Virus record (IMG/VR): IMGVR_UViG_3300042906_001457
Coordinates: 1 to 21,512 of that record
Direction: 5' to 3' (one strand)
DNA from: a virus
Length of the DNA: 21,512 nt
Shown: one piece after another, positions 5,534-20,781 of the stretch
Layout of the letters: the number at the start of each line of letters is the position of its first letter
Numbering within the stretch: position 1 is the first letter of the stretch
Program-made: the position numbers and the translations under genes
Notes under the pieces: model-generated
The model's input: the letters and a program-made list of their open reading frames with translations, nothing else
What the model was told of the DNA's origin: nothing
Databases searched by the model: none

Positions 5534-6266
5534 TGCGGATCTCCTTTTTTTTACAAGTTTTTAGTTTTTCAACGGCCGATTTAGGCCACGGAAGCCAAGA
5601 TTTTGACGCGTCTACCGACGCAAGCGGGGCCGGGTGCATAATGCTAACCGGGAGCGTTTCGTCGTGATCAAGGCCGAGCGAGTGCCCTATTTCGTGCGCC
5701 ATTGCGACAACGGAATGACGATAACGCGCCGCACCTTCAGCGTTGGTAATCATCGCAGAGGTCATTGAGACTCTGCCGCTTCCGTCCCAGTAACACCGAA
5801 ATTGATACGCCTGCCCGACAATGTAGCGAGCGCCTTGATACTCTACGGGAGGGATAAGCGCATGATGCACCACCCGTGCACCTTTGCGACGACGCCCTAC
5901 GAAATAATCTTCGTCCCACCACCAGTGCGCATCATCGACGCCGTAGCCTCCAAGTCGTGTCGGGCGTTTCCTGGGGTTTGGTAAGCACTCAAACCATCTC
6001 AAGCGCAAACTAACACCGAGGGCCGCGTAAAGCGCTTGTACATCTCGAAACATGCGCCGCCCCTCTTCGCACGTCACCGAGTGTGGTCCCGTCGCAACAA
6101 CGAGCGAAACCGGCACGGTTTGAGCCGACGCAACCACCGGCGCCAACCCAAAAAGGAGGGGGAAGGCAAGGCGTTTGCAAAACCCGCATTTATAGCGCAG
6201 CATCATGCGTAGCAGTCGTTTCACGCGGCGCAAAAACCTTTGACCTCGCCTTTCCCCCATAATCAT
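5517..6266 (-). CDS. Secreted metzincin-type zinc metalloprotease (matrixin-like)
   Basis: 249 residues from ATG 6266, which overlaps the upstream stop as ATGA and has AAGGAGG four bases before it; the ATG at 6260 is an alternative. The active site HEIGHSLGLDHD (residues 191-202) is a full metzincin motif HExxHxxGxxH: His191, His195 and His201 bind zinc and Glu192 is the base. The Met-turn SIMHP (Met210) follows at the expected short distance, as in the M10 matrixin group. Residues ~27-48 (CGFCKRLAFPLLFGLAPVVA then SA) form a signal peptide with probable cleavage after ASA, preceded by an unusually long basic n-region. The enzyme should be exported to the periplasm or outside. The substrate is unknown; host envelope proteins or proteins released by lysis are possibilities. 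A Zn protease in a phage middle operon is uncommon. Confidence 0.85.
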   Translation of the reverse strand: MIMGERRGQRFLRRVKRLLRMMLRYKCGFCKRLAFPLLFGLAPVVASAQTVPVSLVVATGPHSVTCEEGRRMFRDVQALYAALGVSLRLRWFECLPNPRKRPTRLGGYGVDDAHWWWDEDYFVGRRRKGARVVHHALIPPVEYQGARYIVGQAYQFRCYWDGSGRVSMTSAMITNAEGAARYRHSVVAMAHEIGHSLGLDHDETLPVSIMHPAPLASVDASKSWLPWPKSAVEKLKTCKKKEIRNGAAR

Positions 6267-6550
6267 TTTTCCTCCTTGGTCATTGCTTCCTCGAGCGCGC
6301 ATCGAACGGATCGCCGTTGAGCTACCCAGGTTTCGAACGTGTCGTGCTTGTACCAGAGGAAAGTTGTTTGACGCGCCGCCTCAAAAGCGTCTTTTCGGAT
6401 CACCTCAAGCTCGTGAGGCGTGACGAAATAGCCCTCTTCGATCCGGTCGTCTTTGTGGTACGGCATGAGGTTTTCGCCCGCCGTGTTCACGCGGTACGGG
6501 ATGCGGGCGCCGTCTTCTCGTAGGTAGGTGTGTAACCAAACTTTACGCAT
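6263..6550 (-). CDS. Hypothetical protein
   Basis: 95 residues, MRKVWLHTYLREDGARIPYR to ALEEAMTKEEK. The ATG at 6550 is preferred to the longer frame (to 6568) because GAGGAG precedes it and it overlaps the MarR gene stop by eight bases. It has a beta-like N-terminus, then FVTPHELEVIRKDAFEAARQ and a helical C-terminus. Its last codons (KEEK) form the ribosome-binding site of the metzincin gene, so it is translationally coupled to the protease. No family is recognised. Confidence 0.7.
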   Translation of the reverse strand: MRKVWLHTYLREDGARIPYRVNTAGENLMPYHKDDRIEEGYFVTPHELEVIRKDAFEAARQTTFLWYKHDTFETWVAQRRSVRCALEEAMTKEEK

Positions 6551-6986
6551 GGCACTCCTCCACAGCATCGACGATGTTTCGGAAATGCTCAGTTAGTCCG
6601 ATGTGATCGGCTTCGTCGAAATATTTTGTAATCTCCTCACACCCGGCCTTTACCAACTCCTCGGCTTCGCTAAGTGCCGCGCGGCCGTCATCGGTTACAT
6701 GCACCGACACAACGCGCCGATCGCGCGAGTCGCGGGTGCGATACACCCAACCCATAAGCTCCATGCGGTCGATCATCCTAGTCATATCTGGCCGTGCTAC
6801 GGCGGCAGCTTTGGCCAACTCGCGCACTGATACGGGGCCGCCGGCAGTGACAGCGACGCGCAGGGTGTAGAACGTGGGAACGCTCATCTGATACCGTGCG
6901 AGGGTTTTGTTTAAGTGCTGCCGCGCCCTCGAGGCGACGGCGAAAAGTTGCCAAACGGTTTTTTCTTTACGGCTTAGGTTCATCAT
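6543..6986 (-). CDS. MarR-family transcriptional regulator
   Basis: 147 residues from ATG 6986 (GGAGG six bases upstream; a second ATG follows at once). The MarR pattern is clear: an N-terminal dimerisation helix (LFAVASRARQHLNKTLARYQ), the helix-turn-helix VSVRELAKAAAVARPDMTRM, the recognition helix continuing IDRMELMGWVYR, and the wing with the family signature RDSRDRRVVSVHVTDDGRAA, followed by a long C-terminal helix. MarR proteins bind DNA as dimers and usually repress nearby genes in response to small ligands. It lies just upstream of the metzincin in the same operon and may control it or a host gene. MarR proteins are not standard phage immunity regulators, so this looks like accessory cargo. 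Confidence 0.88.
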   Translation of the reverse strand: MMNLSRKEKTVWQLFAVASRARQHLNKTLARYQMSVPTFYTLRVAVTAGGPVSVRELAKAAAVARPDMTRMIDRMELMGWVYRTRDSRDRRVVSVHVTDDGRAALSEAEELVKAGCEEITKYFDEADHIGLTEHFRNIVDAVEECHA

Positions 6987-8483: not shown

Positions 8484-9336
8484 CGCGCTCCTCCGCTTCA
8501 AGTTTTGCAATTAGCTCAAGGTGAGTTTTGATCTGTTTCTCAGACTGAGACTCCTGACCCAGTACCAATTCCTCGTTTAAGCCCCTCCAGCCCTTCGCTA
8601 TGGCGCGATCGACGAGCTGCACGTATCTCCGGGGGTCTGTTTCAAATTGGCGCACTTGTAGGGCGTAGGAATCGATCAGGCACGGATGGCCGGATCGGGC
8701 TTTGTACTCGACCCATCGAGCGAGCGCGGCGCGGGCTTGGTCGCCCCACCGAGGAGGGAAATCAAAATCGGTTTCAGCGAACACGCGGTACTTATCCGCG
8801 CGCGCGCGTTTCCGATCCTTAGAGTTATTATTCTGGTTCTGGTTCTTATTATTATTCTGGTTCTTATTCTTATTGGGGCCGTTCAACGACTCGTTAACGG
8901 CCGTTGCAGCGTTCGTTGAACGGTCGTTGAACGCCCGTTGTGCACGTCTTTCAGCAGATAACCGACCGGCTTCTTTACGTTGTTCGAGAGCCTTCTCGTA
9001 CCGCTCCATGCGCTCAAGCAGGGATCGGGAACGGATAGACCCGTTTTGGTCCCGAATGAACAAACCGACGTTTACCGCGAGGTCTAGGAAAGTTTGAAAA
9101 TCGGTAGCACGCTCATTGAGCGACAACGCTACGGCCATTACCGCGTCGGCCTGTATGGCGTACTCGGAATCCTCGCGCATCACCTCGAGGCAAGCGAAGT
9201 AGAGCCCGTAGTAAGCCCAACCGCCGGCAGCCCGGAGGCGTAAAAGTTTCTGATCGTTTCTGGCGTTGGCGTCGTGTAGGAAACCAGCAGCTTCTTTTCG
9301 TCGCCGTGGTTGTGTAGAATTGTTTTGGGCGGTCAT
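8473..9336 (-). CDS. Phage replication initiator (Lin1244/Lin1753-like N-terminal domain; lambda O analogue)
   Basis: 287 residues. The N-terminal ~95 residues have the Lin1244/Lin1753-like pattern of phage replication proteins: GFLHDANARNDQKLLRLRAA, then GWAYYGLYFACLEVMREDSE and a helix-turn-helix-like part ending VGLFIRDQNGSIRSRSLLER. A basic helix (MERYEKALEQRKEAGRLSAE) leads into a strongly biased Asn/Lys/Gln linker (about residues 152-172). The C-terminal domain is FPPRWGDQARAALARWVEYK and IAKGWRGLNEEL, a common end module of these initiators. The linker DNA carries phased repeats and an AT-rich tract, a likely origin. The loader gene follows with overlap. GAGAG precedes the ATG at moderate spacing. 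Confidence 0.8.
   Translation of the reverse strand: MTAQNNSTQPRRRKEAAGFLHDANARNDQKLLRLRAAGGWAYYGLYFACLEVMREDSEYAIQADAVMAVALSLNERATDFQTFLDLAVNVGLFIRDQNGSIRSRSLLERMERYEKALEQRKEAGRLSAERRAQRAFNDRSTNAATAVNESLNGPNKNKNQNNNKNQNQNNNSKDRKRARADKYRVFAETDFDFPPRWGDQARAALARWVEYKARSGHPCLIDSYALQVRQFETDPRRYVQLVDRAIAKGWRGLNEELVLGQESQSEKQIKTHLELIAKLEAEERDAN
8822..8946. other. Candidate replication origin inside the initiator gene
   Basis: On the initiator side (8880-8946) lies a ~11-bp phased series based on CGTT-n-AACG: CGTTCAACG at 8880, CGTTAACG at 8892, CGTTGAACG at 8914 and 8925, with degenerate units at 8902 and 8936. Next to it, 8822-8878 is an AT-rich tract made of TTATT/TGGTTC triplets. Repeats followed by an easily melted tract within an initiator gene is the lambda ori layout. 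The arrangement is seen; the function is inferred. Confidence 0.5.
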
Positions 9337-9367
9337 CGATTGCTCTCATCAATCGGTCCCGCCTACT

Positions 9368-9396
9368 AAACCCGCCTTAGACCAGCGGGTTTTTTT
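9368..9396 (+). terminator. Rho-independent terminator-like hairpin
   Basis: AAACCCGC (9368-9375) pairs with GCGGGTTT (9385-9392) across a nine-base loop, and a T run (9390-9396) follows on the plus strand. No plus-strand gene ends here, as both neighbouring genes are on the minus strand. It might stop antisense transcription coming from the left, or be a host-derived piece of the attachment region. Confidence 0.65.
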
Positions 9397-9401
9397 ATTT
9401 A

Positions 9402-9419
9402 GGCGAGACAGTTCTCGCC
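9402..9419. repeat. Short perfect hairpin
   Basis: GGCGAGA (9402-9408) and TCTCGCC (9413-9419) form a seven-pair stem with a four-base loop CAGT. It follows the terminator-like hairpin directly, in the gap between the initiator and integrase genes. It has no T run in either direction. Confidence 0.5.
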
Positions 9420-9443
9420 ACGTTCAGACACCTCCACATTTTG

Positions 9444-9499
9444 TTATCGGACAAAAAAGATCCGATGACTTGACTTATCGGGCATTTTTTGTCCGATAA
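9444..9499. repeat. Four TTATCGG-type sites in alternating orientation; attP arm-site or operator candidate
   Basis: TTATCGGACAAAAAA (9444-9458) and its exact complement TTTTTTGTCCGATAA (9485-9499) form a perfect 15-bp inverted repeat. Between them lie CCGATGA (9462-9468, one base different) and TTATCGG (9475-9481). This gives four short sites within 56 bp, just beyond the 3' end of the integrase gene, where attP with integrase arm sites is usual. The attachment core cannot be identified without the bacterial junctions. Confidence 0.5.
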
Positions 9500-9593
9500 G
9501 CATTTGTGTGGGTGTATCAGAGCGTGACACACATCATGTGTCGATTGTTGTAAGGGTAATCCCCTAACCTGACAATATAGAAAATGATAAATC

Positions 9594-10652
9594 TTAGAAC
9601 TCTAATTGTTGCGCAACGTTATCAAAGTTCGAGTGCCGCAGCTTGTCGTATCGCTCAAGCATTTGAATGGATGAGTGCCTGGAAAACTTCAGCACCTCTC
9701 TGTGCGGTAATCCGTCTTGAAGGAGTTTCGTGATTGCAGTCGCTCGGGCACAGTGCGGGCTAAACTGCCCGGTAAGCCCAACCCGGCGCATATACCCGGT
9801 GAACTGCCGGCGCACGGTGCGATCCAACATAAACTCGTTGACCGGCGCCCGGTCGCGGTACTTAGTAAAAAACGGATGGAGGTCGCTGGCCCCTTCCGTC
9901 TTCCTCACCTCGAGGTATGCACGGATATGGACGGCAGCCCAGGAGCCGATCGTTTGCTCCTCAGCGCGCTGGCGTTTGGTATTCCGAAGGGTAAGGATCA
10001 CCGTTCCGGCCGTACCCTCTTTCACATCGCACAGCCTGACGCCAAGCGCTTCGTTGATACGCAAGGCGCCGCCAAATAGGGCAGCCAATAGCGCTTTATC
10101 TCGCGCACCCTCGGGGCCGCTATATTCAAGTTTGAACAGCTCGCGCACCTTCTCAAACGGTATTAGTTGGTGGGGCCGGCGGTCGTTGCCCTGTATACGG
10201 CGCATATCTTTTTTTGCTTTGCGCCACGGGTTTGACGTAACGCAGCCCAAATGCGCCAGTTCGTCCCAAATACTACATAGGATGATCACCTTGTGCTTAA
10301 CCGTTGCGAGGCTTACGCGGTCAGATATGAGGGCGCTTCGGCCCCTTTGAGCCGGCAGGGTGCGAAGGTGGTTTGTATATCGGACAACCTCGACGTGTCC
10401 TATGGTTTTCAGGCGGCTAGCCCCCTCTTGTGTGTACTCAATGCCAAAAAGGCCACAAAACTCGTGCAATACGGTTCTCTACTGTTTTGCGGTAGTAGCA
10501 GCCTTCAGGTCGAAAAACTGGTTTAGGTCGTCGAACATTCCCCACGCTCCACGAATACCGTTGTCACGGGTATTATTCGGCAGTATGGGATTTTTGTTTC
10601 GTAGGTCAGTAGGCGCATGAATGAGGCGCAAGGTGGGGCGGGCGGTGTTCAT
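9594..10652 (-). pseudogene. int: Tyrosine recombinase/integrase with an in-frame amber codon
   Basis: The reading frame runs 352 codons from ATG 10652 (GGAGG five bases upstream) to 9594 but is broken by TAG at 10479-10481 (codon 58). Downstream all catalytic residues are present, numbered on the full frame: Arg198 (GGALRINEAL), Lys226 (RNTKRQR), His300 and Arg303 (SPHCARAT), His326 (FSRHSS) and Tyr335 (LERYDK). The stop falls in the first helix of the core-binding domain, in TAKQ-stop-RTVLHEF, where related integrases often have Tyr. Possible outcomes are restart at TTG 10469, giving 291 residues with an intact catalytic domain, readthrough, a true lesion, or a sequencing error. The enzyme would integrate and excise the phage at att sites; repeats beyond its 3' end may be part of attP. 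Confidence 0.8.
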
Positions 10653-10665
10653 TACATCCTCCAAA

Positions 10666-10693
10666 GGCGGCGACCCTCCCCAGAATCGCCGCC
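10666..10693 (-). promoter_or_regulatory. GC-rich hairpin between recT and integrase genes
   Basis: On the minus strand GGCGGCGA and TCGCCGCC make a perfect eight-pair stem with a 12-base loop, followed by TTT and at once by the GGAGG of the integrase gene. It lies in the 48-base gap after the recT stop. It could attenuate or protect the transcript and so lower integrase expression; the U run is too short for a standard terminator. Confidence 0.45.
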
Positions 10694-10700
10694 CGTGTAC

Positions 10701-11546
10701 TTACTCTGTTGTGACCTCGCCGGTGTCGAGGTCGATAGTCACGTCACCTTCAACAGCCGACAGAAACGCTTCTACAGCCTTGCGGTCCAGGTCGGTTAAC
10801 TTGTCGGCGTTCGCCCGTAGCTTCCGCGCATCCGACTGATACGCCTCGCGCACCGACTGACCCTGCAAGCTGCAACGGGTTGTGATAACCCACCGCGCGA
10901 GCGCGTCCAGGTCTTCACCGTCGATGGCGTTCTGCAACACCTTCGCCGGGTCAGTTATAAAGTGCTCGGGTATATCGTCGCCGTCCGGTAAGGGCATGAC
11001 CTTCGTCAGTTTCGGGCGTTCAACGACGGTCGAATCGTCCATTTCCTCGCGGCTGTACAAACCACCGAGGATGTCGGCGAACATATTCCTGACCAAAATT
11101 GATACCGCTCGAGCGTACAACATCGCCTTCGGCATCCGCTTCCAGTTGTCTTTGTTTACGAGCCCCGCGCGGGTTGCATCGACCCAGGTGTACGTTGCCG
11201 AGTCGGTCCAATCGCCGCGGGTGCACTCGAGCGTGCATACGGTGTCAGACCACTCGAGGGTTTTGATTTTGCCGCCGTGCGCAATGGCTAAACTTTTCAG
11301 GGCTTGTGCCTCAAGGGCGGGTTTGCCGTTGATCACAGTGATCGAGTTGAGCGCGCGGATCGGTGAAAACCCGAGCTCGCGCCCGTAAAGGATCGCCGTT
11401 AGCACGCTTTCGGGGCTTCGATAGTGCGTAGGCAACATGCCGGATTTTAGCAGCACGGTTGCCATGCTCAGTTTTTGGCTCAAGTTGTTGGCGTAGCTCT
11501 CAATCGAGGCCGGTCCATCGGTGAGGGTTGCGAGGTCTTTACTCAT
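10701..11546 (-). CDS. recT: RecT-family single-strand annealing protein
   Basis: 281 residues. The family pattern is clear: LLKSGMLPTHYRSPESVLTA, ILYGRELGFSPIRALNSITV and INGKPALEAQALKSLAIAHG at the N-terminus, CTLECTRGDW, then VNKDNWKRMPKAMLYARAVS and FADILGGLYSREEMDD. Such proteins bind single-stranded DNA and anneal complementary strands in phage recombination and repair. The C-terminal ~80 residues are acidic and less typical. AAGGAG lies before the ATG at 11546, and the start overlaps the preceding zinc-finger gene by eight bases. No partner exonuclease of the RecE or lambda Exo type is seen next to it, so it may act alone or use a host nuclease. I am sure of the broad family, less so of the exact subfamily. 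Confidence 0.85.
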   Translation of the reverse strand: MSKDLATLTDGPASIESYANNLSQKLSMATVLLKSGMLPTHYRSPESVLTAILYGRELGFSPIRALNSITVINGKPALEAQALKSLAIAHGGKIKTLEWSDTVCTLECTRGDWTDSATYTWVDATRAGLVNKDNWKRMPKAMLYARAVSILVRNMFADILGGLYSREEMDDSTVVERPKLTKVMPLPDGDDIPEHFITDPAKVLQNAIDGEDLDALARWVITTRCSLQGQSVREAYQSDARKLRANADKLTDLDRKAVEAFLSAVEGDVTIDLDTGEVTTE

Positions 11547-11751
11547 GGTGCGTGTCTCCTTCGTGGTTAGTCATCTTTTCAATGTTGCGTAAAATTGTCT
11601 CGAGCTCGCGCGCGCCTACCTCGGCGCATTCCCTCGAGCAGTATTCGCCGTGCCGTGCAATCCACCACGTTTTTGTATGGCGGTAGATGTCGCGGTCGCA
11701 GCACGAGCAGCGGCGGCCCCTGTCGTCGTCAATAGTGCGTGTTTCAACCAT
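11539..11751 (-). CDS. Small zinc-finger protein
   Basis: 70 residues. Cys motifs CSCC (residues 15-18) and YCSREC (residues 37-42) can form a four-Cys zinc site of the type seen in MYM/FCS-like or DUF2116-like fingers (WWIARHGEYCSRECAEV). A helical C-terminus (ARELETILRNIEKM) ends in His-rich HEGDTHHE. A G-rich stretch precedes the ATG, and its 3' end overlaps recT by eight bases. Probably a nucleic-acid or protein-binding accessory; the exact role is unknown. Confidence 0.7.
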   Translation of the reverse strand: MVETRTIDDDRGRRCSCCDRDIYRHTKTWWIARHGEYCSRECAEVGARELETILRNIEKMTNHEGDTHHE

Positions 11752-11759
11752 GTGGCCCC

Positions 11760-11969
11760 CTACTCTTTCCCGCTATTGTACCACTGCGCAGCAATAGTTA
11801 CGGCGGCTTGGATGAGGTTCTCGCGCGCCTCAGCACTCAAACCGAGGTTCTCCGTTTCCACGACGTTTTCAATCTCGGTGCGCAGCGCTATCAAATGGCG
11901 CACCAGATCCGCAGCATCTCGTCGGTCGGCCGCGGGTAGCGTTAATGGTGGTTTTGTTTTTGTTGGCAT
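11760..11969 (-). CDS. Hypothetical helical protein
   Basis: 69 residues, MPTKTKPPLTLPAADRRDAA onward. The ATG at 11969 is preferred over the longer frame (to 11996) because AAGGAGG lies four bases upstream. After a Pro-rich start the protein is helical (LVRHLIALRTEIENVVETEN, ENLIQAAVTIAAQWYNS). No motif is recognised. A strong hairpin region lies just upstream in the transcript. Confidence 0.65.
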   Translation of the reverse strand: MPTKTKPPLTLPAADRRDAADLVRHLIALRTEIENVVETENLGLSAEARENLIQAAVTIAAQWYNSGKE

Positions 11970-11996
11970 TGGTCCTCCTTGACCCCTCGGCAACAT

Positions 11997-12071
11997 CGCC
12001 GATCAGTGCCCTGCCCTATTTTAAGGCAAAGCACTCATCGGCGGCGGCGTAACCCTCATCGAGCTACGCCG
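11997..12071. other. Two tandem hairpins in an operon gap (structured leader or small RNA candidate)
   Basis: CGCCGATCAGTGC (11997-12009) pairs with GCACTCATCGGCG (12031-12043) with one mismatch in 13, and an inner TGCC/GGCA stem closes a nine-base loop. A second stem, CGGCGTA (12045-12051) with TACGCCG (12065-12071), follows. They occupy most of the 108-base gap between 11969 and 12078. No T run follows either stem, so simple termination is unlikely. Confidence 0.5.
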
Positions 12072-12077
12072 ACCGCG

Positions 12078-12269
12078 CTATCGTTTACGTGAGAGCTCTT
12101 GCATGTCCTTTGAGCTAGGCACCGAAAGCACAACGTCGTTGCCCATTACGTGCACGTTGAAAAACATCCACGAGCCCAGGACGCCCAACACAATCATGTC
12201 GGTGATGATGGTGACGGCGAGCCCTTTAAGGGTGAACAAGTCTTGTTTGATCTCTGTGACTAAACTCAT
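12078..12269 (-). CDS. Small one-pass membrane protein
   Basis: 63 residues, with one hydrophobic segment at about residues 16-38 (LAVTIITDMIVLGVLGSWMF) and a basic C-terminal tail (SSKDMQELSRKR). The start is an ATGA overlap with the lipoprotein gene, so the two are translationally coupled. Both are the first products of the leftward operon. A membrane protein paired with a lipoprotein could act in the envelope, for example in superinfection exclusion; a spanin-like pair is less likely because of the early position. Confidence 0.65.
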   Translation of the reverse strand: MSLVTEIKQDLFTLKGLAVTIITDMIVLGVLGSWMFFNVHVMGNDVVLSVPSSKDMQELSRKR

Positions 12270-12466
12270 GATCCAAGCACCTCCTCGGTTTCAGCCTTAC
12301 AACTAACGAACAAACATTTAAGCGGCGGTGTTTTGTGTGTCTTTTGCGAGCTATACGACTCGTCAACTTTCATCACCCACGCCTTCCCGCCAATCTCTAA
12401 ACCGCTGCAACCGGTTGCGCATACAAGCGCCGCACAGCACAGCAAAACCTTGATTACGTTTCCCAT
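12266..12466 (-). CDS. Small lipoprotein, first gene of the leftward operon
   Basis: 66 residues from ATG 12466 (AGGAGG seven bases upstream; the frame extends to 12520 but lacks a ribosome-binding site there and would run into the promoter). MGNVIKVLLCCAALVCATGC is a lipoprotein signal with cleavage probably before the Cys at position 20 (CATGC, then SGLEIGG). The mature part has about 47 residues with two more Cys (KCLFVSCKAE), which could form a disulfide. It is a likely early or lysogenic product. Tiny phage lipoproteins made early, such as T5 Llp, block the phage receptor; that role is an inference. Confidence 0.72.
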   Translation of the reverse strand: MGNVIKVLLCCAALVCATGCSGLEIGGKAWVMKVDESYSSQKTHKTPPLKCLFVSCKAETEEVLGS

Positions 12467-12523
12467 TGTGTTTCCTCCTATTGGTACACGTTTTAACCTT
12501 TGTACATTATCGTTGTACAAGTA

Positions 12524-12552
12524 AACTTACTTGAGTGTGATGAGGATAGCAA
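12524..12552 (-). promoter_or_regulatory. Candidate leftward early promoter
   Basis: On the minus strand, TTGCTA (12547-12552) and TAAGTT (12524-12529) are 17 bases apart, which predicts a start near 12517 and a ~50-base leader before the lipoprotein gene. The -10 lies inside the palindrome 12518-12533 and the start point inside TTGTACAA, so repressor binding would block it. The hexamers match the sigma-70 consensus only in part. Confidence 0.45.
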
Positions 12553-12572
12553 GAGAAGTTGTGCAAGTATTG

Positions 12573-12600
12573 TTGCAGTGTGCAAGAAAAGATGTACAAT
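12573..12600 (+). promoter_or_regulatory. Promoter of the repressor gene, probably giving a leaderless mRNA
   Basis: TTGCAG (12573-12578) and TACAAT (12595-12600) are 16 bases apart. The expected start is seven or eight bases after the -10, on or next to the A of the repressor ATG (12608), and there is no ribosome-binding sequence. Lambda cI from its maintenance promoter is leaderless in the same way. Confidence 0.55.
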
Positions 12601-12607
12601 GTAAGTT

Positions 12608-12841
12608 ATGCGAATGAAACTGTTGGATCTTGTTAAGAAAGAGCGCGGGCTTACCAATTACGGCGTGGCAAAGGCGCTTCGGGCGCTTGGTGTTGAGATA
12701 ACGACTCAAGGTATTGACCACTACGAAAAGGGCAAGGCAAAGGCTATGCGGCTCGATGTGCTGTGTGGCCTTAAAACGCTCCTGGGCGCCAAGTGGGAAA
12801 CCGTCGGCAAAGTGCTCGAGGAGGAGTTTCGGAAGAAGTAA
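12608..12841 (+). CDS. Small helix-turn-helix repressor (Cro/CI-like)
   Basis: 77 residues. The N-terminus has an XRE/Cro-like helix-turn-helix: LLDLVKKERGLTNYGVAKAL, RALGVEITTQGIDHYEKGKA, followed by MRLDVLCGLKTLLGAKWETV and a charged C-terminal helix (KVLEEEFRKK). It has no LexA-like cleavage domain, so it resembles Cro or a short repressor rather than an SOS-cleaved CI. The gene diverges from the leftward early operon across repeated TTGTRCAA sites, which makes it the likely ligand of those sites. It starts at ATG 12608 just after a -10 element; ATG 12614 is also possible. Whether it maintains lysogeny or favours lytic growth cannot be read from the sequence. Confidence 0.78.
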   Translation: MRMKLLDLVKKERGLTNYGVAKALRALGVEITTQGIDHYEKGKAKAMRLDVLCGLKTLLGAKWETVGKVLEEEFRKK

Positions 12842-12930
12842 CGTTGTCGCTACGGGTCAAAATTACTATATGCGTAAGTGTGCGAGTTTATTGATTGTTG
12901 CCCAGTGGGTTTTCCCCCACCCCCTTGCGC

Positions 12931-13185
12931 ATGGTTATGAAATTCGACGTAGTAGAGCCCATGATTGAAAACGATAGCGTCAAAAATAAGCCGCCGTTGC
13001 TCGGTGTTTGGTATTACAACGCAAAGCAAATTTGCGCGATGTTCGGGTTTTCCAGAACGCATCTCTGGCGGCTTCATCGAAGCGGCGACTTTCCTAATCC
13101 TCGACAGCTTGGCCCTAACCGCGTTGGGTGGCTCGCATCGGAGGTTATAGCGTGGGCAGAGAGTCGGCCACCGGTTGAGTATTAG
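12931..13185 (+). CDS. AlpA-like/excisionase-type DNA-binding protein
   Basis: 84 residues from ATG 12931; ATG 12937 or 12961 are equally possible, since none has a good ribosome-binding site. The core YYNAKQICAMFGFSRTHLWR, then LHRSGDFPNPRQLGPNRVGW and LASEVIAWAESRPP, is the winged-helix pattern of the AlpA family (also used by phage excisionases). In this family, the Phe-Pro-x-Pro stretch and the x-x-x-WL-x-SEV end are hallmark positions. AlpA proteins bind DNA to activate or repress prophage genes or to steer excision. It follows the repressor gene by 89 bases in the same direction and may form a two-gene immunity/decision unit with it. Confidence 0.8.
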   Translation: MVMKFDVVEPMIENDSVKNKPPLLGVWYYNAKQICAMFGFSRTHLWRLHRSGDFPNPRQLGPNRVGWLASEVIAWAESRPPVEY

Positions 13186-13286
13186 CCTCAGCGCCATGTA
13201 AACAAGCTACACGTTTTTCACTTACATCCTGCGCACGGCTGAAACGTGCTTCGTTCCAAAATATCGAAAGATGCCGGGTTTTTCGG

Positions 13287-13330
13287 TGGGGGGATCTCAT
13301 CACGTTATTTTTTATGATGTGATCCCCCCA
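13287..13330. repeat. Long GC-capped palindrome with T-rich loop
   Basis: GGGGGGATCTCATCA (13288-13302) pairs with TGATGTGATCCCCCC (13315-13329) with a single mismatch, and the flanking T13287/A13330 adds a pair. The 12-base loop is T-rich. No T run follows the stem on either strand, so it is not a standard terminator. It could be a protein-binding or DNA-packaging element. Confidence 0.6.
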
Positions 13331-13621
13331 TAAAATGCGCGGCACCTCCGAAGAGCAAAAACAGGGAGAAAACAGACACAAAATCCGACGCGGTTTTATC
13401 CCTGTTTTGTAAAAGTGGAGGGGTTTGGAATTTTGCCGAACCCCTTGACGCACCGAGAAGGCCACAGAGCGCCAAGCAATTAAGAGCGGGTGAAACGTGC
13501 TGCAACAGTGAAGGGCTTTATTCATTATTCACGCCTATAGGTGATGCATGAATGAATAATGCATAAGGGCAGAACGCGGGGGGGAGTAATATACTTGTTT
13601 ACATCGAAGCGGAGGGTTTCC

Positions 13622-13650
13622 TTGTAAAGTTGTGCAAGTGGCCTTACCTT
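13622..13650 (+). promoter_or_regulatory. Candidate terminase promoter carrying the TTGTRCAAGTR operator
   Basis: TTGTAA (13622-13627) and TACCTT (13645-13650) are 17 bases apart, with TTGTGCAAGTG (13630-13640) between them. The predicted start falls on the A of the terminase ATG (13657), as at the repressor promoter. Both hexamers are weak matches, so the call rests largely on the shared operator and spacing. Confidence 0.42.
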
Positions 13651-13656
13651 GAAAGT

Positions 13657-14103
13657 ATGGCGCGCACAAAACCCTCCCCTTCCCCAGATGCACCTAAGAA
13701 CAAAGGCGGCCGGCCTCGCGAGTATGACCGAGATAAGGTTTTGCCGTATGTGTTTGAGCAGCTTTCACAGGGCAAGTCACTACGACGCATATGCGCCGAT
13801 CCAGAACGCCCCGATATTCCCGAGGAGAATACCGTGCGCGATTGGTGCGAAGCGCCCGAGCTTTCCGCGCAATACGCGCGCGCGCGCGAAAGGGGTGTGC
13901 TATCTCGAGCCGAGCAGATTAGTGATTTGGCAGCATCGGCAACCCCTGAAAACGTGCAGGTGGTAAAGTTGCAGGTTGAAACTTTGAAATGGGAAGCCTG
14001 TAAGCTCCTGCCAAAAATATACGGGGAACGGCAGCAAATAGAGCACACAGGAAAGATTGAATCCATCACCGTTAACGTCACCAGGAAAGAACCGCCAAAG
14101 TGA
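13657..14103 (+). CDS. terS: Terminase small subunit
   Basis: 148 residues from ATG 13657; the frame continues to TTG 13630, but that would run through the predicted promoter. The N-terminus is basic and Gly/Pro-rich (KNKGGRPREYDRDKVLPYVF), followed by a helix-turn-helix (EQLSQGKSLRRICADPERPD, EENTVRDWCEAPE) and helical segments (QYARARERGVLSRAEQISDL, VKLQVETLKWEACKLLPKIY), then GERQQIEHTG. This is the usual form of phage small terminases with a DNA-binding N-domain and oligomerising core. It recognises viral DNA and hands it to the large subunit. The stop overlaps the GTG start of the large subunit gene by four bases. A (CG)7 tract lies inside the gene. Confidence 0.85.
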   Translation: MARTKPSPSPDAPKNKGGRPREYDRDKVLPYVFEQLSQGKSLRRICADPERPDIPEENTVRDWCEAPELSAQYARARERGVLSRAEQISDLAASATPENVQVVKLQVETLKWEACKLLPKIYGERQQIEHTGKIESITVNVTRKEPPK

Positions 14104-15593
14104 ATGTTGAACTAGAGCTCAGTTTGTGGCCGCGGCAGGAACAAGCGTTCCTGACTGAAGCCACCGAGCTCTTGTTTGGTGGCGCAACAGAAGGTGGAAA
14201 GAGTCATTTCGTTAGGGTAGCGCTTATTGCATGGTGCATGGCGATCCGTGGCTTGCAGTGCGTACTTATTCGTAAAAAGTACCAGGACATTCTCGACAAC
14301 CATGTAGAGGGGCCGACAGGTTTCCGCGCGCTTCTGGCGCCTTTGGTGGACGGCAAAGCGGTTAAGATAACCGACGGAGACATAACGTTTTGCAATGGCT
14401 CGCGCATAGCTTTTCAGCACTGCCAGGATGAGCGGCAGTTTTCAAGTGCGCAAGGTATCGAAAAACATGTGCTAGTCATCGACGAGGCGACGCAGATAAG
14501 CGAGCGCCTTATCCGGTTCTTTCGCGCATGGGTGCGAATGCCAAACGATATGAAGGATGCGCTCCCTCCGGAGTGGCGCGGCAAGTTCCCGCGCATCATT
14601 TACACGGCTAACCCTATCGGGCAATCAGTGCCGTACTTTAAGCGCAACTTTGTCGAGCTATGCCAAGACGAGACGATCGTGCCGGTAGACGGCTTCAAAC
14701 GACAATACCTTCTTTCCAGGTATACGGATAACTACAGCGTTGACGAGGAAGCCCACATCGGTCGCCTTGATGGTATCGGAGACGCACAGCTTGCTCGAGC
14801 TTTAGACCTCGGCGATTGGAACGCAATCACGGGGGAATTCTTCCCGGAGTGGGATGAGGACCGGCACGTCATCAAATACGATTTTCGGGTGCCCTCGCAT
14901 TGGACTAGGTTCCGCACCTTCGATTGGGGAACCGCCGATCCATTTGCGGTGTATTGGATGGCCGTAGCCGATGGTGAGCCTTTCCCAGACGCAGAGGGAA
15001 AGCGTAGGTGGCTACCTCGAGGATCGCTTGTTGTGTATCGAGAGTGGTACGGGTGCGACTCAAACGATCCGGCAAAGGGTGCCCGGCTTAGAAACGAAGA
15101 GATCGCGCTTGGTATTGTGGCTAGGAGTGAAGTAGGACACGAAAACGTCCCAACACTTACCGACTCGCTACCATTTCAGGACAGGGGCGGCGAAACTATC
15201 GCCGAGGTATTTAGGAAAAATGGCGTCATCCTCACTCACGCCGACACCTCACGCATTCCCGGTTGGTCACAGATGCGCAGCCGGTTGATCGGCATTCAAA
15301 TCGACTCCAACGACCCCTTGCGATATCCCCTATTGTATGTAACCGCCGATTGCAAGTATGCTAGAGACTACATTCCAGCCCTCCCCAGGCATCCATCCGA
15401 ACACAAAAAGGAAGATGCCGCCGAACACGGGGAAGCAACCCACGCCTGTGACGCTATCAGGCTCGGTTGTATGGCCCACACAATAATCAAAGACAAGAAG
15501 TTACCGACGGAAGCACGCATAAACCGCGCGCTTGCCTCAAAACCAACGATGAAAAAGATCGCGGCGCGCATGGGATATGGCAATATCGGTTGA
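14100..15593 (+). CDS. terL: Terminase large subunit (packaging ATPase and nuclease)
   Basis: 497 residues, starting at GTG 14100 (GTGA overlap with the small subunit stop, AGGAAAG upstream). The ATPase domain has a Walker A-like loop GGATEGGKS (residues 27-35) and Walker B HVLVIDEAT with Asp128-Glu129. The nuclease domain begins RTFDWGTADPFAVYW (Asp275), has a central acidic region and ends near HACDAIRLGC with Asp451. This enzyme cuts concatemeric DNA and pumps it into the prohead at the portal vertex. The gene directly precedes the portal gene, whose start overlaps it by 17 bases. Length and motif order are normal, and no key residue appears to be missing. Confidence 0.95.
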   Translation: MNVELELSLWPRQEQAFLTEATELLFGGATEGGKSHFVRVALIAWCMAIRGLQCVLIRKKYQDILDNHVEGPTGFRALLAPLVDGKAVKITDGDITFCNGSRIAFQHCQDERQFSSAQGIEKHVLVIDEATQISERLIRFFRAWVRMPNDMKDALPPEWRGKFPRIIYTANPIGQSVPYFKRNFVELCQDETIVPVDGFKRQYLLSRYTDNYSVDEEAHIGRLDGIGDAQLARALDLGDWNAITGEFFPEWDEDRHVIKYDFRVPSHWTRFRTFDWGTADPFAVYWMAVADGEPFPDAEGKRRWLPRGSLVVYREWYGCDSNDPAKGARLRNEEIALGIVARSEVGHENVPTLTDSLPFQDRGGETIAEVFRKNGVILTHADTSRIPGWSQMRSRLIGIQIDSNDPLRYPLLYVTADCKYARDYIPALPRHPSEHKKEDAAEHGEATHACDAIRLGCMAHTIIKDKKLPTEARINRALASKPTMKKIAARMGYGNIG

Positions 15594-18165
15594 AGAAGTA
15601 AAGGCGTTCATCGAGGACGCAAAGAAGGCGCGCGAGTCGTGGATCACGTGGGCCGAACGCTCATGGGCCGAAATAAAAAAGCGCCAACGAAACAACCGCC
15701 TTTTGTCTGTTACCCCAAACAGTGCCAAGCGCCGCGCAAAGTATCCAGCGTGGTATGGCATTTTCAAAATAAGGCAACCCCTCCTTCTGTCGCGCGTTGG
15801 TATCCCTATCTGCAAGGATTCAACCCAGGACGGCACCGACAATATCGGCGCCTCGGCAGCATTCTTCAAAGAACGCCTAGCCGTAAACCTCGCCAAATCG
15901 TTCCCGTTTTTCGATGCGTTGTGCACGGCTCGCGACGATTTTCTAGTGACCAATTTTGGCATACTTCGTGCGTACTATGAGCGTGACGAGGTAAAGCAGA
16001 AGGTAAAGGAACGCATCTTTCCACAGCAGGATGAGGCAACGGGGGATGTGGTTTTCATCGACGGTGCCGGGAACGTCGTGCAGAGTGACGACATCGGGCA
16101 GGACGACGAGGGATATTTCCTCGAAACCGATGAGGTGATCGACGTAGAGAACGAGCGCGTGTGCCTCGACCAAGCGCTGTACAAAGAGGTCTACATCGAT
16201 CCAGACATCAAGCGTTTCAACCGCTGCGAGCGCATGGCGTTCGAGCTTCATTACTCAGTGCCGCAGTTCAAAGCCGTTTTCGGTGCTCGAGCGTATGCAG
16301 CGATCCCCAAATCTGACGACCCCAAAGAGGGCATCGACGAGGCAAGCCCAAAGCGCCAAACGATCAAGGTGTTTGAGTATTGGGATAAGTACGAGAAAAA
16401 GGTTTTATGGGTGCCCGAGCTTGGCAGTGAGTTCATCACCCCGAAAGCGATGCAGGTGCCGGAAGAGTACAGCGAAGGCGAGCAGCCCAACGGCTTGTAT
16501 GACCTCGAGCACTTTTTTCCCGTGCCTGACCCTATCCTGTCGAACCAATCAACGGATGAGTTCTGGCCGGTTCCAGAGTTTTATCAGCTTGTAGAGCTCA
16601 TCGAGGACATCCACACGATATTCAGCCGCATGATGGCGCTCACAAAAGCGATCCGCGCGCGGGTGTTGTTTGACAACAACGTCGAAGGGCTTCAAGAAGC
16701 GCTTGCGGAGGCCACCGAAGGCGACGCGTTCGGGGTGCCAAACCTCGCGCAATCGCTTGTGAGTAACGGCGGCAGCCTCGATTCCGTTGTGCAGTACATA
16801 CCCGTCGAGAAGATGGTTGCAGCTTTGGCGCAAGTATACCAGGCGCTCGAGCAGCGGTTAAACACCCTTTACCGGCTTACAGGCGTTTCAGACCTCCTCC
16901 AAGGGCTCATTTCCGACGGCACGCAACGCACGTTCGGCGAGCGGCAGATGCTCGAAAAATACGCGCTAAACCAGCACGCCGAGCCACAGCGAAAAATGCA
17001 GGAGTTTGTGCGTAACTGCTACGAGCTCCTTTGTGAAATGGCGCTCAAAAACTTTAAGGACGAATCCCTCGAGCGCTACATGCTACCGGCAACAGCGCCC
17101 CAGGTTCACCAACAGAATTTCAAAGCCGCTCTCGAGCTCCTAAAAGACGACCGCAAACGTTTCCGCATCGAGCTAGAAACCGATTCTACCATCGCGCTCA
17201 ATGAACAGTACGACAAACAAATGCGGGTTGAGCTTGTGAACACGCTCACCGGCGCAATCGAGAAGGTTGCCGGGATCGCGACCTCTTCCCCTGCCCTGGT
17301 TGCTATTGAGCTCCATGCGCTTAAATTCATGGTGCAGGGCTTTAGGCAGGGCAAGATGTTTCAGCAAGAAATCAGCCAGGCTATTGACCAGGTGATCCAG
17401 CAGATGCAGGCCGCAGCCGATCAAGAGCCGGCGCCAAATCCCGATCTGATGCGGTTTGAGTTCGAAAAGCAGGTGAAGGAAAGTGAGTTGAAGCTCAAAG
17501 AGTATCAAATACTCTCTAACGAGCGCATCGAAACCGCTCGAGTGCAGCTCGAGCAGCAGGTAAACAACATCAAATCACAGCTCGATCAGATGCGGCTAGA
17601 GGCGCAGACAAGCGACAATCTCGCCAAACGACAGCTTGAGTTTGAACAGGTTCGCAACGAAATCACCGTCGCACAAACCGAGCTTGCGCAACGTTCGCAG
17701 GAGCTAGAGATCGAGGTTGCCAAGCTTAACGATGACCGCAATAGAGCGGCGTACGAAGCGGCCGCGACCGAGCGGCTTGCAATGATCGATGCCGAGCTCA
17801 AATCCGCAGCGCAGCGCCTCGAGGAGTACCGCGTGCAGATGGAGGAGGCGCGCACGCAGATGGAAATCCAAGAGCGGTGGGCGACAGAGGCGCGATTACA
17901 ACAGGAATATGAGCTTGATAAATTGTTAAAAGCGGTCGAGGTAGCAAATAAACAGGCCGAGGGGCAGCAGGCGGCCTTTGTTGCAATGGCTCAGGCCAAG
18001 GCAGCGGCGGCGCCTCCACCACCCAAAAGCAAGAAAAAAATTAAGGTAAGCCGCGATGAGCTTGGAAACGTTGCAGGCTACGAGATCGAAGGGGGCGACG
18101 GGTACAGGGTGATTCGAGACGCAAACGGCGATGTTGTAGGGTACGAGCCAATCGGGGGGATATAA
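15577..18165 (+). CDS. Portal protein with long C-terminal coiled-coil extension
   Basis: 862 residues, ATG 15577 inside the terL 3' end. The first ~600 residues fit a podovirus-type portal: a helical wing region (FFDALCTARDDFLVTNFGIL, YYERDEVKQKVKERIF), a central stem/clip part (LFDNNVEGLQEALAEATEGD, VSNGGSLDSVVQYIPVEKMV, LNTLYRLTGVSDLLQGLISD, GTQRTFGERQMLEKYALN), and the residues that form the crown. From about 620 to 795 follows a nearly pure heptad-like coiled coil rich in Glu, Gln, Arg and Ala, then an Ala/Pro/Lys linker and a tail holding two related copies of RD-x-x-G-x-V-x-GYE. Portals are dodecameric rings for DNA passage. The coiled coil may be a long barrel or a scaffold-like fusion. 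Family by context and pattern. Confidence 0.87.
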   Translation: MAISVEEVKAFIEDAKKARESWITWAERSWAEIKKRQRNNRLLSVTPNSAKRRAKYPAWYGIFKIRQPLLLSRVGIPICKDSTQDGTDNIGASAAFFKERLAVNLAKSFPFFDALCTARDDFLVTNFGILRAYYERDEVKQKVKERIFPQQDEATGDVVFIDGAGNVVQSDDIGQDDEGYFLETDEVIDVENERVCLDQALYKEVYIDPDIKRFNRCERMAFELHYSVPQFKAVFGARAYAAIPKSDDPKEGIDEASPKRQTIKVFEYWDKYEKKVLWVPELGSEFITPKAMQVPEEYSEGEQPNGLYDLEHFFPVPDPILSNQSTDEFWPVPEFYQLVELIEDIHTIFSRMMALTKAIRARVLFDNNVEGLQEALAEATEGDAFGVPNLAQSLVSNGGSLDSVVQYIPVEKMVAALAQVYQALEQRLNTLYRLTGVSDLLQGLISDGTQRTFGERQMLEKYALNQHAEPQRKMQEFVRNCYELLCEMALKNFKDESLERYMLPATAPQVHQQNFKAALELLKDDRKRFRIELETDSTIALNEQYDKQMRVELVNTLTGAIEKVAGIATSSPALVAIELHALKFMVQGFRQGKMFQQEISQAIDQVIQQMQAAADQEPAPNPDLMRFEFEKQVKESELKLKEYQILSNERIETARVQLEQQVNNIKSQLDQMRLEAQTSDNLAKRQLEFEQVRNEITVAQTELAQRSQELEIEVAKLNDDRNRAAYEAAATERLAMIDAELKSAAQRLEEYRVQMEEARTQMEIQERWATEARLQQEYELDKLLKAVEVANKQAEGQQAAFVAMAQAKAAAAPPPPKSKKKIKVSRDELGNVAGYEIEGGDGYRVIRDANGDVVGYEPIGGI

Positions 18166-18168
18166 AGA

Positions 18169-18594
18169 ATGGCAAACGCTCTATATCCAAAATACAAGCA
18201 AAAGATCCTTAACCCTGGCACGCTCGGACCTACAAGCGCGGATGCGGTTGATCTGATCGATGATACGATCAACGTCGCGCTAATTGACACCGGAATTTAT
18301 TCGTACAACTCAGCCGATGAGTTCTACACCGCCGTAAGTTCGGCAGTGGTTGGAACACCTCAAACGTTATCAAGCAAAAGCGTAACGAGCGGCGTTTTCG
18401 ATGCGGCTGACGTGACGTATTCGGCAGTCACCGGCAACAGCATCGAGGCGCTTGTACTGTATAAAGACACCGGATCAGCAGGCACCAGCAGTTTGATTGC
18501 CTACATTGACACCGTTTCAGCCGGACTACCCGTTACGCCTAACGGCGGTAATGTGGTCATTCAATGGGCAGCAAATGGGATATTTACCTTATAA
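18169..18594 (+). CDS. Phage structural protein of unknown role
   Basis: 141 residues, MANALYPKYKQKILNPGTLG onward. It is all-beta by composition: NVALIDTGIYSYNSADEFYT, GVFDAADVTYSAVTGNSIEA, LVLYKDTGSAGTSSLIAYID and VTPNGGNVVIQWAANGIFTL. Proteins of this pattern are widespread in tailed phages and sit among head or tail genes, with no settled function. It starts three bases after the portal stop, where a run of G and A (GGGGG-A-TAT-AAAG-A) supplies the ribosome-binding site. Head-tail or tail-tip attachment is plausible. Confidence 0.75.
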   Translation: MANALYPKYKQKILNPGTLGPTSADAVDLIDDTINVALIDTGIYSYNSADEFYTAVSSAVVGTPQTLSSKSVTSGVFDAADVTYSAVTGNSIEALVLYKDTGSAGTSSLIAYIDTVSAGLPVTPNGGNVVIQWAANGIFTL

Positions 18595-18603
18595 GGGCAA
18601 AAT

Positions 18604-19131
18604 ATGGCGGATAACGTAGGCTATACCCCCGGGACTGGGGAAATAATAGCAACAGACGATGTCGCAGGAGTACAGCATCAAAAGATAAAAATTACCCTTG
18701 GTGATGACGGCATTGATGATGGCATGGTGTCGGCGAATAATCCGTTGCCGTCAATAATTACCAACTCCGAGGCCGGGCCAATACCAGTTAGAGTTTTTGT
18801 TGATTCAAATTTACCAGCAACATCGACTGATCCTATACCAACACTGCCACAGGGCGAAATTGTCGAAGCGCTGGAAGCGGTGCGCATGGGGGTTCAGTCG
18901 CTTAATAGAACCGTCGGCCAAGCGTTACCCGATAGTGCTAACAGGTTGAGGGTCAACATTGAGGCCGGGACGTTACCCACCGTGACTACTGTAAGCACGG
19001 TCACGACTGTAACGACTTGCTCAGCATTAACGAATCAAACGCAACTCGGAGGCAATCCAGCGTTCGAGCAAATACCAGCTTTGTTACGATTGGCGGCAGA
19101 CGCTTTGAGACGAAACATAAGTGTGACGTAG
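18604..19131 (+). CDS. Phage structural protein with beta-rich tail, unknown role
   Basis: 175 residues. An N-terminal acidic part (GEIIATDDVAGVQHQKIKIT, LGDDGIDDGMVSANNPLPS) is typical of small phage virion proteins. It is followed by a helical segment (EIVEALEAVRMGVQSLNRTV) and a Thr/Val repeat (TVTTVSTVTTVTT) near residue 130, and ends with a helix (IPALLRLAADALRRNISVT). A nine-base gap separates it from the preceding gene. The Thr-Val repeat resembles spacer segments in tail-fibre or baseplate-associated proteins. No named family can be assigned. Confidence 0.72.
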   Translation: MADNVGYTPGTGEIIATDDVAGVQHQKIKITLGDDGIDDGMVSANNPLPSIITNSEAGPIPVRVFVDSNLPATSTDPIPTLPQGEIVEALEAVRMGVQSLNRTVGQALPDSANRLRVNIEAGTLPTVTTVSTVTTVTTCSALTNQTQLGGNPAFEQIPALLRLAADALRRNISVT

Positions 19132-19138
19132 GGGAATT

Positions 19139-20578
19139 ATGGCAACGACTAACGGCAATAGAAAAATTCTTGACTTAAAACGATGGGAGTTTTGCACTCC
19201 TGCCCCAGTAGCAACGGCCGCAGGCGTCTTTGTTTCTTCGTCTAGGCATTTTCGGCAGCGGCAGTTATATGTTCAGTCGGCGACTGTTGCATATCTTTAT
19301 TTGCCCGAAGAAGACGGGTTTGTGCAAGTTGCTTCTCCGGCTTTGGCAGGTACTTTTGGCGTCGGCGCAACAGGCGTGGCCGGGGCATGGAGCACGGGCA
19401 CAAGCGTTGCAACCGCCTCACTTACAGCAACAGCAGGAACAACTAGCTCAATTACCACTAATCAAACCCTAGCAGTCGATTTGCGTGGGTACTCAGTTCA
19501 GATCCTTGCTGGCCCCAACGCGGGCGAAACGAAGGTGATAGCGTCAAACACTATAGGCGCAAACGCTGTAATTACGTTCACGGCAGCCTCAGCGTCGGCA
19601 TTTTCCGCGTCGACGGTGTATAGATTGTGCACTCCCGTTTGGTACGTGCTCGGCGCAGGTACGTTAGCAGCGAACATCTTTAAGAAATACGATTACGCGA
19701 CAAACACGTGGACAGCGCTGACACAGACGGGCTTACCCGCTACGATCGGCACAGACAGCAAGTTAATTTCGACGCCGTCATGGCTTGGCAGTAACTACGT
19801 ATCGTTTGCAACCGGCACGGCAACGGGTGGGACCGCTAACACGATTAGCAACACGGCAAAAAGTTGGTCAACAAATCAATGGGCAAATTACCAAATACGA
19901 ATCACAGGAGGCACGGGAGCCGGGCAAATCCGCACCATTGCCAGTAATACAGGCACGGCAATCACAGTCTCGACCAACTGGGGAACGAATCCAGATACAA
20001 GTTCAACTTATTCGATCGAAGGGAACGATGATTACCTATATTATATCGGTAGTAACGCCGTAACCTTGTATCGTTATTCGATAACGTCAAACACGTGGTC
20101 AACGCTGACGCCAACCGCAGCGCGAGCGGCTGCTCCGGGTGCTGGAATGTCCGGTCAATGGATATGGGAGGTTTCGGCGTCCGAATGGACCAACGAGAAC
20201 GCCATACTCAACGGAAAATATATATATTCGTTCCGCGGCGCCGCTGGCGCTGGATTAGACAGGTACGACATTGCAGCAAACACATGGGAAAATCTTTCAA
20301 CCTATACGCCGGGCACGGAAACGTTTACTACCGGAACAAAGCACGTTTATTCAGGTGATTATATATACTCCCAAAAAGATGCCACAGGCCGTTGGTTCAG
20401 ATTTAGTATTCCGAAACGAGAGCAGGATGGGTTTGGGACTATGACCTACACGCAAGGAGCGGCAGTAGCCGGCGATACTTGCTTTGACGCCTTGTACACA
20501 GACGGAGCTACGCAGATTACCTACATCTACATGATCCTTAACACTTCAACAGTAATGTTACGAATGATGGTGATCTGA
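19139..20578 (+). CDS. Kelch-like beta-propeller virion protein (adhesin candidate)
   Basis: 479 residues. Kelch-type repeats are seen as Y-D-Y-x-x-x-T-W endings: KYDYATNTWTALTQTG (about 183-198), RYSITSNTWSTLTP (about 310-323) and RYDIAANTWENLSTYT (about 376-391). Each is followed by a strand ending in aromatic residues (YIYSFRGAAGAGLDRYD). Between propeller blades sit two copies of a Thr/Gly/Ser-rich module (about 92-165 and 225-292), the second with IRITGGTGAGQIRTIASNTG, the first with VQILAGPNAGETKVIASNTI. This composite of propeller and inserted beta modules is known from phage virion proteins that touch the cell surface or capsid exterior. CTCGAG is absent from the gene, unlike most of the window. 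The adhesin role is inferred. Confidence 0.7.
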   Translation: MATTNGNRKILDLKRWEFCTPAPVATAAGVFVSSSRHFRQRQLYVQSATVAYLYLPEEDGFVQVASPALAGTFGVGATGVAGAWSTGTSVATASLTATAGTTSSITTNQTLAVDLRGYSVQILAGPNAGETKVIASNTIGANAVITFTAASASAFSASTVYRLCTPVWYVLGAGTLAANIFKKYDYATNTWTALTQTGLPATIGTDSKLISTPSWLGSNYVSFATGTATGGTANTISNTAKSWSTNQWANYQIRITGGTGAGQIRTIASNTGTAITVSTNWGTNPDTSSTYSIEGNDDYLYYIGSNAVTLYRYSITSNTWSTLTPTAARAAAPGAGMSGQWIWEVSASEWTNENAILNGKYIYSFRGAAGAGLDRYDIAANTWENLSTYTPGTETFTTGTKHVYSGDYIYSQKDATGRWFRFSIPKREQDGFGTMTYTQGAAVAGDTCFDALYTDGATQITYIYMILNTSTVMLRMMVI

Positions 20579-20757: not shown

Positions 20758-20781
20758 TTTTGCGCTGAAATAGGCGGCTAA

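What the first reader, a model, noticed from the sequence alone, without database searches (positions are those of the whole stretch)
12481..13657. One operator, TTGTRCAAGTR, shared by three promoters
The 11-mer is seen at 12513-12523, 12559-12569 and 13630-13640, with shorter relatives at 12501, 12579 and 12593. The sites cover the -10/+1 of the leftward early promoter, surround the repressor promoter, and lie between the -35 and -10 of the terminase promoter. Phage repressors are known to use repeated operators at divergent promoters. That the same repressor also controls packaging genes directly is inferred and would be an unusual switch. One further copy (19320-19327, TTGTGCAA plus GT) is inside the Kelch gene and is probably chance.
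Basis: partly seen in the sequence, partly recalled or inferred. Interest (0 to 1): 0.72.

Follow-up and report, generated by a model that had tools for sequence, protein, structure and literature searches.

The report
Phage repressor's operators, early region only
A small phage repressor has a clear pair of binding sites at its own promoter and a weaker one at the neighbouring early promoter, an ordinary arrangement; the extra look-alike site at the packaging-gene promoter is missing or altered in related phages and is most likely a chance resemblance.

Summary
The three 11-mers are exactly where stated, against 0.045 expected in the window. Comparison with five related phage lineages changes what they mean. 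The supported operator is a 16-bp inverted repeat, TRCAA-N6-TTGYA. It occurs exactly once in each of six related records and in the window, always at the promoter of the 77-residue XRE-fold regulator. A matrix trained without the phage's own clade ranks two sites there (R1 12562-12577, R2 12581-12596) first and second genome-wide in all six phages tested, including one whose regulator is only 52% identical. Site 12513 is a weaker third operator at the leftward early promoter. The terminase site ranks 119th-193rd, i.e. background. It reads TTGTCCAAGTG in a phage with an identical regulator, and in the others it is the -35 box itself (TTGTAAAAG). The terminase promoter is real and apparently leaderless: TTGTAA-N17-TACCYT-N6-ATG is kept in all close lineages. 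Verdict: an ordinary autoregulated early repressor circuit; direct control of packaging is not supported, though not excluded.

The parts
12608..12841 (+). Rep: 77-aa helix-turn-helix regulator, start codon about 7 nt after its -10 box (leaderless)
   Evidence: ORF; no Pfam, PHROGs, NCBIfam or PDB sequence hit of note; AlphaFold model pLDDT 87.6, helices 5-13, 17-26, 33-40, 49-75; closest folds are XRE-type controller proteins, C.Esp1396I Z 8.7; no Shine-Dalgarno, duplex -1.1 kcal/mol
12562..12577 (+).
   Evidence: Only exact match in the window and one per related record, always here; rank 1 with leave-own-clade-out matrix
12581..12596 (+).
   Evidence: Rank 2 genome-wide in all six phages tested with leave-own-clade-out matrix
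12573..12600 (+). Rep promoter: -35 TTGCAG, 16 bp, -10 TACAAT (12595-12600)
   Evidence: Aligned in five lineages, with TTGTAA-16-TACAAT in L011/L012; same overlap of R2 with the -10 in L031
12513..12531 (+). Operator O1 region, TTGTACAAGTAAACTTACT; weaker third site over -10/+1 of the leftward promoter
   Evidence: TATCGTTGTACAA identical in all five close lineages; 12516-12531 ranks 4-5 of 21,497 in the window, but 38-63 in L011/L012, where the overlapping register ranks 3
12524..12552 (-). Leftward early promoter, -35 TTGCTA (12552-12547), 17 bp, -10 TAAGTT (12529-12524)
   Evidence: Read from sequence; TTGATT-17-TATTGT at the same place in L012; below the 9-of-12 threshold of the consensus scan
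13622..13657 (+). Late (terminase) promoter TTGTAA-N17-TACCTT-N6-ATG, apparently leaderless
   Evidence: One exact match in each of five phages, always at the first late gene; 0 with up to 1 mismatch and 1 with up to 2 in 228,518 background bases
13630..13640 (+).
   Evidence: TTGTCCAAGTG in L017, TTGTAAAAGTG in L013, TTGTAAAAGGC in L011/L012; rank 119-193 on the operator matrix
13657..14103 (+). Terminase small subunit
   Evidence: Sf6_terminase 3.1e-23; phrog_1482 4.4e-29
14100..15593 (+). Terminase large subunit
   Evidence: Terminase_3; phrog_2 2.4e-25
6543..6983 (-). MarR-family regulator in the leftward early operon (rival DNA-binding protein)
   Evidence: Pfam MarR 6.6e-12

Best explanation
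The 77-residue protein is a small Cro/C-protein-sized XRE repressor of a temperate-type phage. It binds as a dimer to 16-bp inverted repeats TRCAA-N6-TTGYA. R1 and R2, 19 bp apart, overlap the -35 and the -10 of its own leaderless promoter and give autoregulation. The weaker O1 covers the start of the divergent leftward early promoter and lets the protein shut off the early genes (recombination, integration, replication). The third 11-mer, at the terminase promoter, is most likely not an operator: it sits where related phages have the -35 box TTGTAAAAGTGG, and two base changes in this phage made it resemble an operator half-site. Shown here: the sites, their conservation and ranking, the promoter geometry, the predicted fold. 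Inferred: that this protein is the binder, that it dimerises, the sign of regulation, and its role in lysogeny.
For: TRCAA-N6-TTGYA occurs exactly once per related record, always at the Rep promoter. A leave-own-clade-out matrix ranks R1 and R2 first and second in six phages, including L031, whose Rep is 52% identical. In L031, R2 ends in the -10 in the same register. The L031 record has operators but no detectable MarR or AlpA. The flank after the RCAA arm changes from GTA to CAA at both O1 and R1 in the L011/L012 clade, as expected if one protein reads both. The fold is XRE, nearest the C proteins. O3 is altered in the phage with an identical Rep (L017) and absent from the rest; 26% of TRCAA-anchored 16-mers in phage DNA score as well as O3.
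Against: No binding data. R2 is only weakly palindromic. O1 lacks a good right arm and its best register shifts between clades. O3 shares an exact 13-mer (AAGTTGTGCAAGT) with the R1 region, and the shuffle probability of an exact motif in those 60 bp is 5e-5. L013 and L012 carry weak operator-like 16-mers over the terminase -35 (ranks 3 and 8). The matrix was built from only six sites chosen after inspection. The consensus promoter scan found no promoter at its threshold.
Confidence: 0.68

Rival explanations
1. One reading: the same repressor binds all three 11-mers and directly represses the terminase promoter as well as the two early promoters.
For: Three exact copies, 0.045 expected; exact 13-mer shared by the R1 region and O3 (sequence); position inside the promoter spacer would block polymerase; weak operator-like 16-mers over the terminase -35 in L013 and L012.
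Against: O3 not conserved, changed even where Rep is 100% identical; background score; L013/L012/L011 lack it altogether; no operator near the terminase genes of L031; homologous position is a -35 box in relatives.
Confidence: 0.14
2. The MarR-family protein of the early operon, not Rep, binds the TTGTRCAA palindromes.
For: MarR proteins bind short palindromes (general knowledge); MarR is present in the window and four related lineages.
Against: L017's MarR is only 67% identical, with changes at the start of the recognition helix, although O1/R1 are unchanged; L031 has the operators but no detectable MarR in a 30-kb record; the palindrome TTGTACAA itself is kept only at O1.
Confidence: 0.08
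3. The repeats are only core promoter elements (-35 TTGCAG/TTGTAA, -10 TACAAT) and no specific repressor site exists.
For: The right arm of R1 is in the -35 and the right arm of R2 runs into the -10.
Against: The left arms TRCAA lie outside the hexamers, are conserved to L031 and are not needed by a promoter; R1/R2 rank first and second genome-wide across clades.
Confidence: 0.07
4. TTGTGCAAGTGG at 13630 is the start of the terminase small-subunit gene (TTG codon, MCKWPYLESMAR...), so its similarity to L017 (MSKWPYLEGMRK...) reflects coding.
For: In-frame TTG ORFs at this place in the window and L017.
Against: In L013 the same triplet is followed by a stop codon (TTG TAA); the -35/-10/ATG spacing is kept despite an 8-bp length difference; ATG at 13657 also lacks a Shine-Dalgarno, as a leaderless start would.
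Confidence: 0.03

Closest known systems
Type II restriction-modification controller (C) proteins, e.g. C.Esp1396I and C.Csp231I
   Same: About 77-80 residues, one XRE domain (best fold match, Z 8.7); leaderless C transcript and two inverted-repeat operators over its own promoter (PMC4824078); [quoted passage not shown] In C.Csp231I a look-alike site between the hexamers of the methyltransferase promoter did not bind (PMC4824078).
   Different: Sequence identity only about 16%; no restriction endonuclease recognised here; operator sequence different (TRCAA-N6-TTGYA, not GACT/AGTC or CTAAG/CTTAG); it faces a phage early operon.
Small phage repressors: P2 C, P22 c2 and TP901-1 CI N-terminal domains, Cro-sized proteins
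   Same: Repressor gene divergent from the early operon, repeated operators at divergent promoters (general knowledge), XRE fold (P2 C Z 6.6, P22 c2 Z 6.3, TP901-1 CI Z 6.3).
   Different: Here the repressor gene lies just upstream of the terminase genes; no C-terminal oligomerisation or peptidase domain; no sequence similarity detected.
Repressors with operators scattered over the phage genome (phage P1 C1; mycobacteriophage stoperators)
   Same: Precedent for one phage repressor acting at many dispersed sites (PMC8198154; PMC9283540 abstract).
   Different: No evidence of dispersed sites here: strong operators occur only at the Rep promoter.

Membership tests
XRE/lambda-repressor-like DNA-binding fold | Compact helical HTH fold | tested here: met
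   Model pLDDT 87.6; nearly all top structural matches are XRE proteins with probability about 0.9-1.0, though Foldseek E-values are 0.3 or more and Z is at most 8.7
Autoregulated phage early repressor (Cro/CI/P2 C type) | Gene divergent from the early operon with repeated operators at the shared control region | tested here: met
   Same layout and R1/R2 ranked 1 and 2 in six phages
Autoregulated phage early repressor (Cro/CI/P2 C type) | Protein binds the operators and represses | not testable with these tools
   Needs EMSA, footprint or reporter
Restriction-modification C protein | Two inverted-repeat operators over its own leaderless promoter | tested here: met
   R1/R2 and missing Shine-Dalgarno, from sequence only
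Restriction-modification C protein | Linked to a restriction endonuclease and its methyltransferase | tested here: not met
   No endonuclease recognised among the neighbours searched; one relative (L017) has a lone methyltransferase-like gene between Rep and the terminase
   Altered or absent in all related lineages except the near-identical contig; rank 119-193
AlpA-controlled sites | AlpA present wherever the sites are | tested here: not met
   AlpA only in the window and its near-identical contig
MarR-controlled sites | MarR present wherever the sites are | tested here: inconclusive
   Not found in the L031 record, which has the operators, but the record may be incomplete

The most novel reading that the evidence does not exclude
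Rep also binds the late promoter of these phages weakly, through a site over its -35 (CGAAAGTAAAGTTGTA in L013, AACAAGTGACGTTGTA in L012, O3 or its neighbour in the window), so that one small repressor silences early and packaging genes directly and times late expression by its own decline.
Probability: 0.12. Interest if true: 0.45.

Novelty: new member of a known kind. Interest (0 to 1): 0.27.

Why it matters
It gives an unannotated phage group a predicted repressor with a defined operator, testable in one gel-shift experiment, and shows how an exact motif repeat at a third promoter can mislead until related genomes are compared. Direct repression of packaging genes would be unusual if true, but the evidence points the other way.

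Tried and rejected
No close phage in the annotated collection and only a weak Rep hit there. The scan of bacterial and archaeal genomes for Rep relatives found none, so no host was identified. Pfam, PHROGs, NCBIfam and PDB sequence searches gave no family for Rep. The palindrome CAAGTAA-AC-TTACTTG at O1 was considered as the operator and dropped because it is not kept in L011/L012. The near-identity of window and L013 over 12488-12667 (3 differences, about 15% on both sides) was not used as proof of constraint, because it includes the start of the Rep gene and may be a recombination tract. A 16-mer self-similarity test of the control region was only marginal (19/300 and 6/300 shuffles). Searches for further copies of the control region and of the late promoter block found only contigs already known.

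Full report
Observation. The sequence TTGTRCAAGTR is present exactly at 12513, 12559 and 13630 and nowhere else in the 21.5-kb virus record. Shuffles give 0.045 exact copies per window, and none of 1000 joint shuffles reproduced the pattern of two copies in the early control region plus one before the terminase gene. Allowing two mismatches, the motif is little more frequent than expected (21 against 14.8).

Setting. The leftward genes include RecT, an integrase, a replication-initiation protein and a MarR-family regulator; the rightward genes are the 77-aa regulator (Rep), an AlpA-like protein, terminase small and large subunits and portal. Related phage contigs were found: L010 (near-identical), L017 (Rep 100% identical, a DNA methyltransferase-like gene between Rep and terminase), L013 (Rep 92%), L012 and L011 (Rep 81%). 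A more distant one, L031, has Rep 52% identical in the same divergent layout with RecT.

The early sites. Alignment shows TATCGTTGTACAA (O1) and GATGTACAATGTA (Rep -10 region) unchanged in all five close lineages, while the 12559 region differs in L011/L012. At O1 and at 12559 the same change, GTA to CAA, follows the RCAA arm in that clade, which fits one protein reading both. Looking for a dyad kept in both clades gave TRCAA-N6-TTGYA: TGCAAGTATTGTTGCA in the window and TGCAACAAAAGTTGTA in L012. L031 has TGCAAGTATTTTTGTA at its Rep promoter. The exact pattern occurs once in each of the six related records and in the window, each time there.

Operator matrix. A matrix from R1 and R2 sites, with the phage's own clade left out of training, ranks R1 first and R2 second among about 8,600 to 21,500 positions in all six phages tested. 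O1 ranks fourth or fifth in the window; in L011/L012 the overlapping register ranks third. R1 overlaps the -35 and R2 runs into the -10 of the Rep promoter; the R2/-10 register is the same in L031. Among other lineages the 12501 relative is kept only in L013.

The terminase site. Its promoter is real by conservation: TTGTAA-N17-TACCYT-N6-ATG has one exact match in each of five phages, always at the first late gene, even where that gene is a methyltransferase instead of the terminase. Background DNA of 228,518 bases has no match with up to one mismatch and one with up to two. The 17-bp spacing is kept although L013 is 8 bp longer between the shared blocks, because a different TTGTAA serves as -35. 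Neither Rep nor the terminase small subunit has a Shine-Dalgarno sequence, while many other genes of this phage do, and the ATG falls where transcription should start, so both transcripts are probably leaderless. The 11-mer at 13630 does not behave as an operator: it is TTGTCCAAGTG in L017, whose Rep is identical, and in L013 it is TTGTAAAAGTG, the -35 itself. On the matrix it ranks 119th (193rd with the own clade left out); 26% of TRCAA-anchored 16-mers in phage DNA score as high. No operator lies close to the terminase genes of L031. The simplest reading is that an older -35 element, one mismatch away from the motif, drifted into it in this phage; the direction of change is inferred.

What remains open. 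L013 and L012 have operator-like 16-mers over the terminase -35 (ranks 3 and 8). Part of the score comes from the -35 itself: among 452 TTGTA-anchored 16-mers, 1.5% and 5% score as high. In L011-L013 Rep is followed by the terminase small-subunit gene after roughly 40 bp, which the late promoter fills, leaving no room for a terminator, so how late genes stay silent in a lysogen is unknown.

The protein. Rep has no family match by sequence. Its model is a confident XRE fold closest to restriction-modification controller proteins; Z values near 8 show a shared arrangement, not membership. C proteins offer the nearest working analogy: leaderless gene, two inverted repeats over their own promoter (PMC4824078), and in C.Esp1396I three operators upstream of two genes (PMC3758141). 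In C.Csp231I a look-alike in the spacer of the methyltransferase promoter was tested and did not bind, a fair warning for the 13630 site.

Verdict. Early operators: supported as a known kind of circuit, with the operator redefined. Terminase control: not supported, not excluded.

Noticed in passing
window 13622-13657; L017 8339-8376; L013 8930-8967; L012 9059-9096; L011 9559-9596: Late promoter TTGTAA-N17-TACCYT-N6-ATG conserved in spacing despite an 8-bp length difference, and kept in front of different genes (terminase or methyltransferase); probably leaderless late transcripts.
   Followed up: partly
window 12842-13620: An AlpA-like gene and about 440 bp rich in inverted repeats (e.g. GGGGGGATC...GATCCCCCC at 13288-13329) lie between Rep and the terminase only in this phage and its near-identical contig; three relatives have Rep almost abutting the terminase gene.
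   Followed up: partly
L017 8347-9672: A large protein with a ParB-like N-terminal part and a DNA methyltransferase-like part replaces the AlpA module between Rep and the terminase small subunit (read from its sequence, no family search run).
   Followed up: no
window 6543-6983 (-): A MarR-family regulator sits in the phage early operon and is kept in the related lineages at 67-100% identity; its target is unknown.
   Followed up: partly
window 5517-6269 (-): A metallopeptidase-like protein with HEIGHSLGLDHD (Reprolysin_5, E 8e-7) in the leftward operon; role unknown.
   Followed up: no
window 12078-12466 (-): The first two early genes encode a small lipoprotein-like protein and a small membrane-like protein with strong Shine-Dalgarno sites, conserved in all close relatives; function unknown.
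   Followed up: no
L031 5281-5460 (+): A small ribbon-helix-helix-like protein is encoded convergent to the distant Rep gene, where close relatives have the terminase genes (judged from its sequence only).
   Followed up: no
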